From a virus, in the IMG/VR virus record IMGVR_UViG_3300021403_000030, positions 1 through 39,038 of that record: DNA of 39,038 nucleotides; one strand, 5' to 3'. Both the position numbers and the translations under genes were made by a program. Shown one piece after another: positions 8,347 to 38,900 of the stretch (the first letter of the stretch is position 1; the number at the start of each line of letters is the position of its first letter). The notes beneath the pieces were generated by a model. That model worked only from the letters and a program-made list of their open reading frames with translations, did not search any database and was not told where the DNA came from.

Positions 8347-8423
8347 TGGTCTCCCGGGGTGGATTTGAACCACCGACTTCTCGGTTCCAAACCGAGCTCG
8401 CTACCAGGCTGCGCTACCGAGAG
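8347..8423 (-). tRNA. tRNA-Pro (anticodon UGG)
   Basis: A full cloverleaf reads on the minus strand. The 7-bp acceptor is CTCTCGG/CCGGGAG. The anticodon arm is CTCGG-TTTGGAA-CCGAG, with anticodon TGG. The T arm is GGTGG-TTCAAAT-CCACC, followed by A and an encoded CCA (8349-8347). The D stem has one G-A mismatch at its base. It is transcribed within the late accessory block and would read CCA and other CCN codons. Confidence 0.96.
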
Positions 8424-12189: not shown

Positions 12190-12310
12190 ATGCTTATTTA
12201 AAGGACATAAATATGTGATGAGCTATATCATAGACTATCGCAGTCATTACCCATCAAGCAATGATAGATGTCAGTGTTGCCAAAAGACAAGAAAAAATTT
12301 AATTATCTAG
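12173..12310 (+). CDS. DUF1660-like small zinc-site protein (45 aa)
   Basis: The pattern [10 protein letters not shown] followed by CQCCQK matches the small phage family DUF1660 (a C...GH...CxxC arrangement that probably holds zinc). AGGAG lies nine bases before the first ATG. It is the last gene of the left early operon, and its end overlaps the opposing cold-shock gene by 12 bases. The function is unknown. Confidence 0.62.
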
Positions 12311-12499
12311 ATGCACATTCTTTGCGACTGGGCCTTTAATGGCGGTCGCAGCATCAAATGTAACCACATCTTTTTCTTTCAAGCTCTTAAAACCATCAGA
12401 ATTTATTTCTTTGTAATGAACAAAATAATCCTTGCCCTGACTCTCGATAAATCCAAAACCTTTGGAGTCATTAAACCACTTTACAATACCTTTTTGCAT
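12299..12499 (-). CDS. cold-shock (CspA-type) protein (66 aa)
   Basis: A complete single cold-shock domain with RNP1 KGFGFI near residue 14 and RNP2 DYFVHY near 24, starting MQKGIVKWF as usual. It binds single-stranded RNA or DNA and acts as an RNA chaperone or antiterminator. AGGATGG precedes the ATG. The gene stands alone on the minus strand after a 100-base leader, downstream of the initiator-operon terminator and converging on the left early operon. Phage copies may aid phage mRNA translation; that is inferred. Confidence 0.93.
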
Positions 12500-12637: not shown

Positions 12638-12850
12638 TTAGAAATCATTTACATAATCACACATTCCGTTATTCATCCACACTATCACAGCTGTTTCTAA
12701 GTATTCGGAATCTATGACGCCTGCCATTATATCTTCTTTGTCCTCAATGCTCAATAGCCTGCTAGAAATCAGCTTTGGAGAAACCCCAAGTTTCATCCCA
12801 ATTTTAAACAGCAACTGCTGACATTGGCGCTGCGTTAGCTGCATTTCCAC
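12638..12850 (-). CDS. hypothetical protein coupled to the initiator (70 aa)
   Basis: An unknown helical protein. The sequence LGVSPKLISSRLLSIEDKEDI suggests a small DNA- or protein-binding helical bundle. The start is a GTG at 12850 with GGAGA six bases upstream, 46 bases inside the end of the initiator gene, so the two are made together. In lambda the gene in this slot (P) loads the helicase, but the size and sequence here do not support that role directly. Confidence 0.65.
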   Translation of the reverse strand: MEMQLTQRQCQQLLFKIGMKLGVSPKLISSRLLSIEDKEDIMAGVIDSEYLETAVIVWMNNGMCDYVNDF

Positions 12851-13763
12851 AGAACTCTCCTTTTAATTTTCTAAAAGCCTCTTGAAAGCCTTTAAATCCT
12901 TCTCCAGTTGCCACAGCAGCAAATACCTGTTTAGCGGCTTGAGCCTCTTCCCTGTATTGTTTCTGTTTTTCTATGTGATCCAGTTCTTCTTTGTCTCGTA
13001 GTGATTGAGAAGTGATTCCGTTGTAGCCCTGAGGGATTAGCCATTTTCCTTCGCGTACTTTCTTTAGAAAAATATTTATGCGTTTGTTCACTGATTCGAA
13101 GCTTTTGTCTTTGTTAGTTTCAAATGCGTAGTAGATACCCTGATCAACAATCTCTTCTTCGAGAAAAATCTCTCTACTGACAACGATCTGTTCTATGTGG
13201 GTTTTAACAATTTGTTTGTCAGAAAAAACAGAAACAGGGGGTTTAACAGAGTTCCCTTGTTTTTGTTTTTTCTTGAAAACCTCTTGTAAAGACTCTTGTT
13301 TATATAAGTCTGCATATTGTGCAGTACCCTCTGCACGTGGTGCAGTACCCTCTGCATATTGTGCAGTAGATGGCAAATTTTGAGCAAAGTTATCCACAGG
13401 GTCTGAATGTGGTGCAGGGTTAATTTTTTGTTCGGGTTTAAAAAACCCATAGGTCTGAGAAACACTAAATATGTTGGTTTTGCCAAATTTGAAGTTATAA
13501 ATATTTGAGCGTTGGATTAAATAATGTTCGAACTCTAGTTCGTTTAGAACATCGTAAACTTTTCTTTCTGAGATTCCAGAAGAAAGCGCGAGATTTTTTA
13601 CAGTTATTTCAGTTTCATCTACTTCTCTTTTGAAACTAGTTAGCTTTCTAAGTTGCCCGTAAACTTTTAGTGCGTAGGGAGATAATTTATCAAATACAAT
13701 TTCATCAACTATTAAAAAACTAGTTTCTTTTGCGCGTCTGAACTTTACATTATCGTTTTGCAT
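12804..13763 (-). CDS. replication initiator, O/replisome-organiser type (319 aa)
   Basis: The N-terminal 110 residues form a winged-helix DNA-binding domain (SPYALKVYGQL, then TVKNLALSSGISERKVYDVLNEL), as in phage and plasmid initiators that bind repeated origin sites. The middle (residues 115-155) is a low-complexity stretch whose codons are themselves the origin iterons, as in lambda O. The C-terminal half is charged helix, probably for helicase recruitment. It is read after three small genes, and the leader contains an antisense RNA unit. No other replication origin protein is seen. Confidence 0.8.
   Translation of the reverse strand: MQNDNVKFRRAKETSFLIVDEIVFDKLSPYALKVYGQLRKLTSFKREVDETEITVKNLALSSGISERKVYDVLNELEFEHYLIQRSNIYNFKFGKTNIFSVSQTYGFFKPEQKINPAPHSDPVDNFAQNLPSTAQYAEGTAPRAEGTAQYADLYKQESLQEVFKKKQKQGNSVKPPVSVFSDKQIVKTHIEQIVVSREIFLEEEIVDQGIYYAFETNKDKSFESVNKRINIFLKKVREGKWLIPQGYNGITSQSLRDKEELDHIEKQKQYREEAQAAKQVFAAVATGEGFKGFQEAFRKLKGEFCGNAANAAPMSAVAV
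13310..13417. other. replication origin iterons inside the initiator gene
   Basis: Four copies of a 15-bp partly palindromic unit, CTG-N9-CAG with core CTGCA-N5-TGCAG, lie at 13310-13324, 13331-13345, 13352-13366 and, more diverged, 13403-13417. The first three are spaced exactly 21 bp apart, two helical turns, so an initiator would bind one face. The third and fourth are separated by a DnaA box. The layout is that of the lambda origin. Confidence 0.8.
13390..13398 (+). promoter_or_regulatory. DnaA box
   Basis: TTATCCACA is a perfect match to the DnaA 9-mer. It sits between the third and fourth iterons, so host DnaA probably helps open the origin. Confidence 0.72.
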
Positions 13764-13771
13764 GTTATAAT
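13744..13771 (+). promoter_or_regulatory. promoter for antisense RNA over the initiator leader
   Basis: TTTACA (13744-13749) and the perfect -10 box TATAAT (13766-13771) are 16 bases apart on the plus strand, overlapping the initiator start codon and reading away from the gene. Transcription would begin near 13778. Confidence 0.65.
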
Positions 13772-13777
13772 AACCTC

Positions 13778-13868
13778 GTTATGTATGTGCCCGTCTAAAG
13801 CACTATTAGGGATATCGACAAAGGACGGCTAATCCTTTGAAGTTGGGCATGATGCCCAAATTTATTTT
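13778..13868 (+). ncRNA. OOP/ctRNA-like antisense RNA (about 90 nt)
   Basis: Between a strong plus-strand promoter and an intrinsic terminator lies a predicted 90-base RNA antisense to the leader of the initiator mRNA. It folds into GTGC/GCAC (13787-13802), a 7-bp stem CAAAGGA/TCCTTTG with the 7-base loop CGGCTAA (13819-13839), and the terminator hairpin. The mRNA side of the loop reads TTAGCCG, which contains a YUNR U-turn motif typical of plasmid copy-control loops, and CTAAT in the leader can pair with it. It would limit initiator synthesis. Lambda OOP RNA has a similar place beside O. Confidence 0.6.
13843..13868 (+). terminator. intrinsic terminator of the antisense RNA
   Basis: TTGGGCA and TGCCCAA form a perfect 7-bp stem with a three-base loop, followed by TTTATTTTTT on the plus strand. 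Confidence 0.82.
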
Positions 13869-13995: not shown

Positions 13996-14169
13996 TTAAG
14001 ATTTTAATTCTTCTTTTATTTCATCAGCAAAATTAGTAAGAAATTCTGCTGCAACTGATAACTGTTCTGGACGAAAACAAAACATTCCGCCTCCTCTCTT
14101 TAAGACTTCGTCATATATTGAATTTGCCAGTTTAGTCAGTAGTTCCTCAGCTTTTTTATTAATATCCAT
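13996..14169 (-). CDS. hypothetical helical protein (57 aa)
   Basis: An unknown protein with two helices (KKAEELLTKLANSI, SVAAEFLTNFADEI) around a glycine turn (RGGGMF). GGGAGA precedes the ATG, and the start abuts the stop of the gene upstream. Confidence 0.62.
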   Translation of the reverse strand: MDINKKAEELLTKLANSIYDEVLKRGGGMFCFRPEQLSVAAEFLTNFADEIKEELKS

Positions 14170-37602: not shown

Positions 37603-38850
37603 TTAAGAACGTATACGAACCGCAAATTCTGGGTTAATAGCCACACCACAGATAACGTCAATACGGTCTAACTGCTCATAATTGCGAATATCAGCACCAA
37701 GGGTATAAGTTAAAGAGAGCTTGTACAGATCGCTATAACGAGTCACAGCTTCCACGCCACCCCTTAATTCTTTGATAGGAGGAGCTGCGAATACTATGGA
37801 TTGAGTATGATAAGCAATACTTACATTATGGGTTCTAGCAAGTAATAGTTGAGCACCATTGGGGATAGCTGCTGAGATATTTTGGCGTGCACCATCTGTA
37901 ACTATCGTAGGATTGACAGGAATAGATGCCGTATCGCCATCAGCACTAATAACTTGAGCAGTTACAACGAATTGCGCTCTTTGTTCTAAAGGTTCGTAAG
38001 TAAGTGGATTGACCATGAAAACACCAGCACTGTCATCAATCTCTATACTATCGCCCGCATTAAATACTACAGTACCAGGGGCAACCCCCAATCCATTAAC
38101 ATCTATAATATTGCCGCCATTTATTGGCCCATTCGTTACAGTGCCTCCTAATACAAAGCCATCGGGAGGTGTTCCCCCTGATTGACCAGCACCCGCAACT
38201 TGACGACCCAGAAAATTAGTCTTAAAGAAGTCAAATCCTGATAAATGACCAACGAAGCCATCAATCAGAGCACCAGTGTTTACTGTAGGATTAAATACAT
38301 TAAATAAATCGTTTGATAATCCTGCGGCTGTTCTAGGTTGTACCGCGCAATAACGCTTACCGTCTTCAGGTATAGCCAATTCCGTCATATAGGCATCAGC
38401 AATTAGAATAGTATTTAAATCAACAGGCACACCCGGAGTACCAACAGCTTGATAAGTTTGCGGCCAGAAATTATCTCTAGCAATGAAGCCTTCAACTAAG
38501 TTAGCTAAGCGTTTAGCTCTAGGAGCATTTGCCATTTCTAAATATGGCTCATCTCGGGCACGATCGAAAGTAAGCTCAAAGCCTGTATATTCGATCATTG
38601 TTCTAAATTGTTTGGTAATAGAAAGAGGGCGTATAATTTGAACGCGTGCTTCAGAAGTTGCAGTTGCGCCTTCACCAGCTAAATAGCGCTCTTCTAAGCG
38701 ATAATCTATTGTTTGACCAGTTGCGAATCGTAAATTTTTAAAATCACCTTCTAAATTTCTATTAGAGGTTCTTGCAAATGATAAGCTATTCCAAAATCTT
38801 ACAAACACGTCATCCAGCACATACTGGGTTTCTCTAAATACATTAGACAT
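37603..38850 (-). CDS. major coat protein, P22 gp5 type (415 aa)
   Basis: This is the main capsid protein of the P22 family (P22 coat is 430 aa) with the HK97-like fold. An N-terminal arm precedes the TGQTIDYRLEERYLAGEGA region. ITKQFRTMIEYTGFELTFDRARDEPYLEM lies near residue 80-105. An insertion with LGGTVTNGPINGG and VVFNAGDSIEI follows near 240-280, where P22 has its I-domain. The end LSLTYTLGADIRNYEQLDRIDV is typical. GGAGAGAACAA precedes the ATG. It is the gene after the scaffold group across the junction. Confidence 0.92.
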   Translation of the reverse strand: MSNVFRETQYVLDDVFVRFWNSLSFARTSNRNLEGDFKNLRFATGQTIDYRLEERYLAGEGATATSEARVQIIRPLSITKQFRTMIEYTGFELTFDRARDEPYLEMANAPRAKRLANLVEGFIARDNFWPQTYQAVGTPGVPVDLNTILIADAYMTELAIPEDGKRYCAVQPRTAAGLSNDLFNVFNPTVNTGALIDGFVGHLSGFDFFKTNFLGRQVAGAGQSGGTPPDGFVLGGTVTNGPINGGNIIDVNGLGVAPGTVVFNAGDSIEIDDSAGVFMVNPLTYEPLEQRAQFVVTAQVISADGDTASIPVNPTIVTDGARQNISAAIPNGAQLLLARTHNVSIAYHTQSIVFAAPPIKELRGGVEAVTRYSDLYKLSLTYTLGADIRNYEQLDRIDVICGVAINPEFAVRIRS

Positions 38851-38900
38851 TTGTTCTCTCCGTGAACAAAATTAAAATTGCCTATAAAAGGCTCCTTTTC
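38851..38900 (-). promoter_or_regulatory. coat leader with two alternative hairpins
   Basis: GCCT/AGGC (38880-38892) and AAAAGG/CCTTTT (38886-38899) share bases, so only one can form. On the minus strand they lie 30-50 bases before the coat ATG, in a leader that also contains the end repeat. The pair could set coat translation or stop upstream transcripts. I see no promoter with good boxes. Confidence 0.35.

What the first reader, a model, noticed from the sequence alone, without database searches (positions are those of the whole stretch)
13744..13868. Antisense RNA unit over the initiator leader, plasmid- and OOP-like
A plus-strand promoter (TTTACA-16-TATAAT) at the start codon of the initiator and a perfect terminator 75 bases further enclose a 90-base RNA with a 7-bp stem and 7-base loop (CGGCTAA). 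The mRNA counterpart loop TTAGCCG contains a YUNR turn, and CTAAT in the mRNA leader can pair with it. Known family features: lambda OOP and IncB/IncF-type copy-control RNAs. Inference: this phage limits its own initiator by a counter-transcript, possibly as an episome.
Basis: partly seen in the sequence, partly recalled or inferred. Interest (0 to 1): 0.75.

Follow-up and report, generated by a model that had tools for sequence, protein, structure and literature searches.

The report
Antisense RNA throttling phage replication initiator
In a large group of uncultivated P22-like phages, a short RNA copied from the opposite DNA strand very probably shuts off production of the protein that starts phage DNA copying, and this RNA switch is found in front of many different starter proteins, much as in plasmids that control their copy number.

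Summary
The plus strand carries a near-consensus extended -10 promoter (TTTACA-16-TGtTATAAT, 13744-13771). After about 91 nt comes a terminator hairpin, and between them lies a perfect 7-bp stem with loop CGGCTAA, all inside the initiator's leader. Alone this could be chance; comparison makes it convincing. In a sample of related phages chosen only by their portal gene, about 16 of 22 contigs that reach the initiator keep the same layout. HP2 and HP3 stems are rewritten by compensatory changes. The antisense -10 occurs at 16/19 leader-bearing initiator starts but 3/920 other gene starts. The leader is uncoupled from the initiator type: its nearest leader belongs to another type in 19/23 cases. 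A second class puts the antisense promoter at a leader peptide coupled to the initiator, as in IncFII/IncB plasmids.

Best reading: a cis-encoded antisense RNA that blocks initiator translation. It sits where lambda OOP sits but works like ColE2/pMV158 plasmid control, as a swappable control module. Episomal life is plausible: no integrase in 18 genomes, ParA in 5, though not in this window. No Rfam family matches. No transcript has been shown.

The parts
13744..13771 (+). Antisense promoter: -35 TTTACA, 16-nt spacer, TGT + -10 TATAAT; overlaps the initiator start codon
   Evidence: -10 and TG kept at 16/19 leader-bearing initiator starts vs 3/920 other ORF starts
13778..13868 (+). Predicted antisense RNA, about 91 nt, complementary to the initiator leader
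   Evidence: promoter-to-terminator distance; transcript itself not shown
13787..13803 (.). Hairpin 3 (sense GTGC-TTTAGACGG-GCAC), next to the ribosome-binding site
   Evidence: covarying stem in relatives
13805..13817 (.). Conserved single-stranded linker (sense GATATCCCTA; family ACATCCnTA-like; antisense carries GGA)
13819..13839 (.). Hairpin 2, 7-bp stem; loop CGGCTAA in antisense, TTAGCCG in mRNA; probable recognition loop
13843..13871 (+). Hairpin 1 and T-rich tail: intrinsic terminator of the antisense RNA
   Evidence: T-rich only on the antisense side across 24 leaders (0.55 vs 0.25)
13774..13777 (-). Shine-Dalgarno GAGG of the initiator, directly abutting the antisense 5' end
   Evidence: sequence; kept as GAGG/GGAG in most relatives
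12804..13763 (-). Replication initiator gene, 319 aa, N-terminal winged-helix fold likely
   Evidence: phrog_428 4e-6 and phrog_270 2e-4; wHTH topology in a low-confidence model
13309..13419 (.). Iteron-like 18-nt repeats (4 copies) inside the initiator gene, likely origin
   Evidence: similar repeats in L003 and L005

Best explanation
The unit encodes a short self-terminated antisense RNA. It is made from an extended -10 promoter laid over the initiator's start codon. It is fully complementary to the roughly 90 nt of initiator mRNA just upstream of the Shine-Dalgarno sequence. Both strands fold into the same three hairpins, and pairing probably starts at the 7-nt loop of hairpin 2 (inferred). 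The resulting duplex would end at the Shine-Dalgarno and stop initiator translation, perhaps with RNase III cleavage (inferred). Because antisense RNA rises with genome copies, this would hold initiator, and hence replication, at a set level per cell (inferred). Shown by sequence: promoter, terminator, hairpins with compensatory changes, conservation in the lineage, and exchange among initiator types.
For: Same anatomy in at least 23 distinct leaders of one phage lineage. Hairpin 2 and hairpin 3 regions fold better than shuffles (mean z -2.80 and -2.24, Fisher P 8e-17 and 4e-11, not corrected for shared ancestry). Stem arms match their own partner (0.875, 0.95) far more than swapped partners (0.37, 0.32). 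The tool's pair count agrees: 13 double-change cells vs 5.0, 0/500 shuffles. Antisense -10 at 16/19 initiator starts vs 3/920, kept even where the coding sequence differs completely (L010, L021, L022, L026). T-rich tail only on the antisense side of hairpin 1. G-U and A-C stem pairs are about equal (18:15), as expected if both strands must fold. Class II phages carry the same -10 at a leader peptide coupled to the initiator in L053, L066, L107.
Against: No RNA data. The terminator T-run is imperfect in several relatives (L002, L024, L026). The -35 is poor in some (L021, L024), though extended -10 promoters tolerate that. Some same-lineage phages lack this leader class (L053, L066, L080, L109). 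RNA folding of the window's antisense RNA alone is no better than shuffled.
Confidence: 0.78

Rival explanations
1. The mRNA leader itself is a cis-acting structured control element (protein-bound or attenuator-like); the antisense promoter is incidental.
For: Hairpin 3 folds better as mRNA than as antisense (z -2.24 vs -1.20).
Against: A divergent extended -10 is conserved at the start codon irrespective of the protein encoded; T-rich tails occur only on the antisense side; G-U/A-C balance shows no strand preference.
Confidence: 0.1
2. It is a true OOP: its target is the upstream cII-position gene, not the initiator.
For: Same place and orientation as lambda oop; OOP opposes cII (PMC3349717). 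The lambda pO -10 CATAAT also overlaps the O start codon.
Against: The predicted RNA ends at about 13868 and the upstream ORF ends near 14003, so no overlap in the window; relatives share the leader but have different upstream ORFs; the leader HMM does not match lambda.
Confidence: 0.05
3. Transcription from the antisense promoter acts in cis (interference with the initiator mRNA, origin activation or priming), the RNA itself being irrelevant.
For: Iterons lie in the adjacent gene; lambda oop transcription has been linked to silencing of ori (PMC3349717).
Against: Does not explain compensatory stems in both internal hairpins or the loop variation.
Confidence: 0.05
4. The leader is conserved mainly as a homology junction for recombining replication modules.
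For: Leader identity is independent of initiator type (0.59 vs 0.57; nearest leader of another type 19/23).
Against: A pure junction would not keep stems through paired changes; compatible with, rather than opposed to, the antisense role.
Confidence: 0.02

Closest known systems
REx-C control module of Pseudomonas plasmids (PMC5304414)
   Same: Stem-loops upstream of a Rep gene, putative antisense RNA with its terminator in the first stem-loop, control module exchanged among several replication protein families, leader peptide coupled to Rep (as in the class II relatives).
   Different: Plasmid, not phage; no sequence match of the window leader in the plasmid collection; REx-C is longer (318 nt) and was tested by replication and incompatibility assays.
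ColE2 RNAI and pMV158 RNAII
   Same: Small antisense RNA complementary to the untranslated leader of the Rep mRNA, for pMV158 immediately upstream of the translation start (PMC5304414, PMC4485353).
   Different: Other initiators and replication modes; no sequence match found; pMV158 RNAII is 48 nt.
Lambda OOP RNA
   Same: Position between a cII-position gene and an O-like initiator, opposite transcription, promoter over the initiator start, short and self-terminating (77 nt; PMC3349717).
   Different: OOP overlaps and targets cII; this RNA lies inside the initiator leader; no HMM match.
IncB/IncI-alpha/IncFII RNAI-CopA systems
   Same: Hairpin-loop antisense RNA controlling an initiator; class II relatives even have a coupled leader peptide (I-complex arrangement in PMC10286972).
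   Different: The window leader has no leader peptide and no conserved loop-leader pseudoknot.
Extrachromosomal mycobacterial prophages, RepA and RNA-based (PMC7157519)
   Same: Phages with plasmid-like prophage replication and ParABS in place of an integrase.
   Different: Actinobacterial; no antisense leader module of this kind in the passages read.

Membership tests
Lambda OOP | Short self-terminating RNA from a promoter at the start of the O-like gene, transcribed against it | tested here: met
   (in silico)
Lambda OOP | Complementary to the 3' end of the upstream cII-like gene | tested here: not met
   predicted RNA ends about 13868, upstream ORF stop near 14003
Lambda OOP | Sequence homology to lambda oop/pO | tested here: not met
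   leader HMM has no hit in lambda 38300-38900
ColE2/pMV158-type antisense control | Antisense RNA complementary to the leader just upstream of the Rep translation start | tested here: met
   (in silico)
ColE2/pMV158-type antisense control | Antisense RNA made and inhibits Rep translation | not testable with these tools
   needs RNA and reporter data
ColE2/pMV158-type antisense control | Homologous Rep or leader sequence | tested here: not met
   no plasmid match for protein or leader
IncB/IncI-alpha pseudoknot type | Loop-leader pseudoknot needed for initiator translation | tested here: not met
   own loop vs own leader no better than permuted, 2.81 vs 2.98
IncB/IncI-alpha pseudoknot type | Coupled leader peptide | tested here: not met
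   absent in the window, where the antisense -10 abuts the initiator start itself; present in class II relatives L053, L066, L107
REx-C-like exchangeable control module | Same control region found before different initiator families | tested here: met
REx-C-like exchangeable control module | Module confers incompatibility through a stem-loop | not testable with these tools
   needs incompatibility assay
Phage-plasmid | No integrase, partition genes present | tested here: inconclusive
   no PF00589/PF00239 in 18 records; ParA in 5/18, not in the window
Any Rfam family | Match at gathering score | tested here: not met

The most novel reading that the evidence does not exclude
A whole lineage of phages carries a plasmid-type copy-control and incompatibility module: antisense RNAs with changing recognition loops (e.g. 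ACTTA-CTGCAAA/CCGCAAA/CGGCAAA-TAAGT) that are swapped freely among unrelated initiators. They would set the copy number of an extrachromosomal prophage and decide which related phages can share a cell.
Probability: 0.35. Interest if true: 0.8.

Novelty: new variant of a known kind. Interest (0 to 1): 0.62.

Why it matters
Antisense control of initiators is a plasmid hallmark; in phages, OOP is the main comparator and its role in replication is still debated. Here is a large, leader-blind set of phages in which the antisense unit lies entirely in the initiator leader, is rewritten by compensatory change, and moves between initiator types. It offers a new RNA family, a natural series for testing antisense-target recognition, and a testable link between phage and plasmid copy control.

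Tried and rejected
Nut-site reading (boxA-like CGTTCTTTA in hairpin 3 of L002/L005): the motif is lost in L010 and L087 while the hairpin remains. CsrA reading (GGA in the antisense linker and in 21/24 terminator loops): left open, but no CsrA is encoded by the phages and the host is unknown. Known RNA family: weak Bp1_162 hit at E 0.037, half its gathering score, not repeated in relatives. Protein relatives in isolate phages, plasmids and bacterial genomes: none. DNA pattern in bacterial genomes: one hit, L031, lies in GC-rich DNA without the other leader elements, judged chance. L027-L030: chance matches. ParM/StbA search uninformative, no control rang. Structure model of the initiator is weak (pLDDT 56) and only suggests a winged helix.

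Full report
OBSERVATION. The window is a virus record of a podovirus-like phage with P22-type portal and coat. On the minus strand lies a 319-aa gene (12804-13763) with weak but consistent matches to phage replication initiators (phrog_428, phrog_270). It has 18-nt iteron-like repeats inside the gene (13309-13419), and a low-confidence model suggests a winged-helix N-terminus. On the plus strand, over its start codon, sits TTTACA-16-TGtTATAAT (13744-13771), the best promoter-like match in the surrounding 10 kb. A terminator hairpin follows at 13843-13859 with a T-rich tail. Between them is the CAAAGGA-CGGCTAA-TCCTTTG hairpin. By single-sequence statistics the unit is unremarkable (fold z about -0.8; 1.2 such promoters per shuffled 39 kb), so comparison had to decide.

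RELATIVES. The initiator has no relative in isolate phages, plasmids or representative bacterial genomes, but has relatives in IMG/VR. Their leaders share three hairpins and a linker: HP1 (GGGCATCCAGCCC-like), HP2 (variable stem, 5-7 nt loop), linker (ACATCCCTA-like), HP3, Shine-Dalgarno, ATG. DNA-pattern searches found the same leader before quite different initiators. These phages belong to one lineage: portal proteins are 60-73% identical to the window's (100% in its near-twin L001) in 12 of 14 records, the other two being short contigs without the gene.

LEADER-BLIND SAMPLE. To avoid choosing phages by their leader, I collected 80 loci by portal protein. Among the 22 with at least 8 kb upstream of the portal, my tally is 16 with the class I leader (some with insertions between HP3 and the start codon, one reduced). 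Two (L073, L091) have a different, longer hairpin leader with the same antisense -10. Two (L053, L066) are class II, and two (L080, L109) are unclear. In class II the antisense -10 sits at the start of a short ORF whose stop overlaps or adjoins the initiator's Shine-Dalgarno or start codon: L053 27 aa, L066 37 aa and, outside the 22, L107 52 aa with an ATGA overlap. That is the arrangement of IncFII/IncB-type leader peptides.

STRUCTURE AND STRAND. Across 23 leaders the HP2 and HP3 regions fold better than their own shuffles. Stem arms fit their own partners far better than partners from other leaders (HP2 0.875 vs 0.37 +/- 0.06, HP3 0.95 vs 0.32 +/- 0.07); the stem finder chooses the best stem, so one search is the cleaner test. 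The independent pair count on 11 leaders gives 93.5% pairs vs 80.8% shuffled, and 13 double changes vs 5.0 (0 of 500). HP1 is almost invariant in sequence and gives little covariation evidence. Stems are mostly Watson-Crick, with G-U and A-C about equal (18:15), which fits both strands needing the fold. The T-rich tail is on the antisense side of HP1 only (0.55 vs 0.25). YUNR is in the antisense HP2 loop in 13 of 16 distinct hairpins and in the mRNA loop in 5; such a motif is reported in recognition loops of antisense systems (PMC4485353).

PROMOTER. The antisense extended -10 (A.TATA.CATG read on the mRNA strand) is at 16 of 19 leader-bearing initiator starts and at 3 of 920 other ORF starts in the same DNA. 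Those three are at ORFs several hundred bases upstream of the initiator. It is kept where initiator coding sequences differ completely, so protein conservation cannot explain it.

MODULARITY. Initiators fall into at least three unlinked N-terminal groups and hit several PHROG initiator/helicase-loader families. Leader similarity ignores initiator type: 0.59 within types vs 0.57 between, and the nearest leader is of another type in 19 of 23 (types assigned by eye from sequence). HP2 stem alleles such as ACTTA..TAAGT and ATCAA..TTGAT occur before several initiator types with different loops. This is the behaviour reported for the REx-C control module of Pseudomonas plasmids (PMC5304414).

MECHANISM. 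The antisense 5' end abuts GAGG at 13774-13777. Full pairing would therefore cover the leader up to the ribosome-binding site, as described for pMV158 RNAII (PMC4485353) and, for the Rep leader, ColE2 (PMC5304414). I infer translation block, possibly with RNase III. The OOP comparison is right for position: the lambda pO -10 also overlaps the O start. It is not right for target, since OOP overlaps cII (PMC3349717) while this RNA ends about 135 nt short of the upstream ORF.

LIFESTYLE. None of 18 near full-length records has a tyrosine integrase or serine recombinase or an S24 repressor. Five have ParA, one of them with a class I leader (L026; ParA in L120). This favours extrachromosomal prophages for at least part of the lineage, but the window phage shows no ParA and its host is unknown.

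VERDICT. A real and very probably functional antisense control unit of a known kind, in a new family and a new setting. Function is inferred from sequence only.

Noticed in passing
L053 4330-4590, L066 4750-5000, L056, L089, L107: Class II leaders: antisense extended -10 at the start of a short leader-peptide ORF coupled to the initiator; L053/L056/L066/L089 share a GTAAATG..CATTTAC hairpin whose TTTGG-type loop resembles (from memory) the IncB/IncI-alpha target loop.
   Followed up: partly
L003 4625, L064 4156, L092 3911, L077 4131, L018 4720: The gene upstream of the initiator often also starts with an antisense -10 (ACAACAGGAAAACTATAACATG), and in most of these loci a strong terminator with a GTGGAGACAC loop (GNRA-like) lies upstream: a possible second antisense unit.
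   Followed up: partly
window 13805-13817 and 13843-13859; 24 leaders: The antisense linker and 21 of 24 terminator loops carry GGA, like CsrA/RsmA sites; the linker AGGGAUGU resembles (from memory) the CsrA consensus. Unexplained.
   Followed up: partly
L120 2183-2824 (G014), also G017, G023, G024, G025: ParA-type partition ATPase in 5 of 18 phages (in G014 near the lysis genes), with no integrase in any.
   Followed up: yes
window 13309-13419: Iteron-like repeats TCTGCATATTGTGCAGTA inside the initiator gene, as in lambda O: likely origin.
   Followed up: partly
window 12299-12499: Cold-shock (CSD) protein gene close downstream of the initiator; a nucleic-acid-binding protein next to an RNA-controlled gene.
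   Followed up: no
window 8347-8423: Phage-borne tRNA-Pro (TGG).
   Followed up: no
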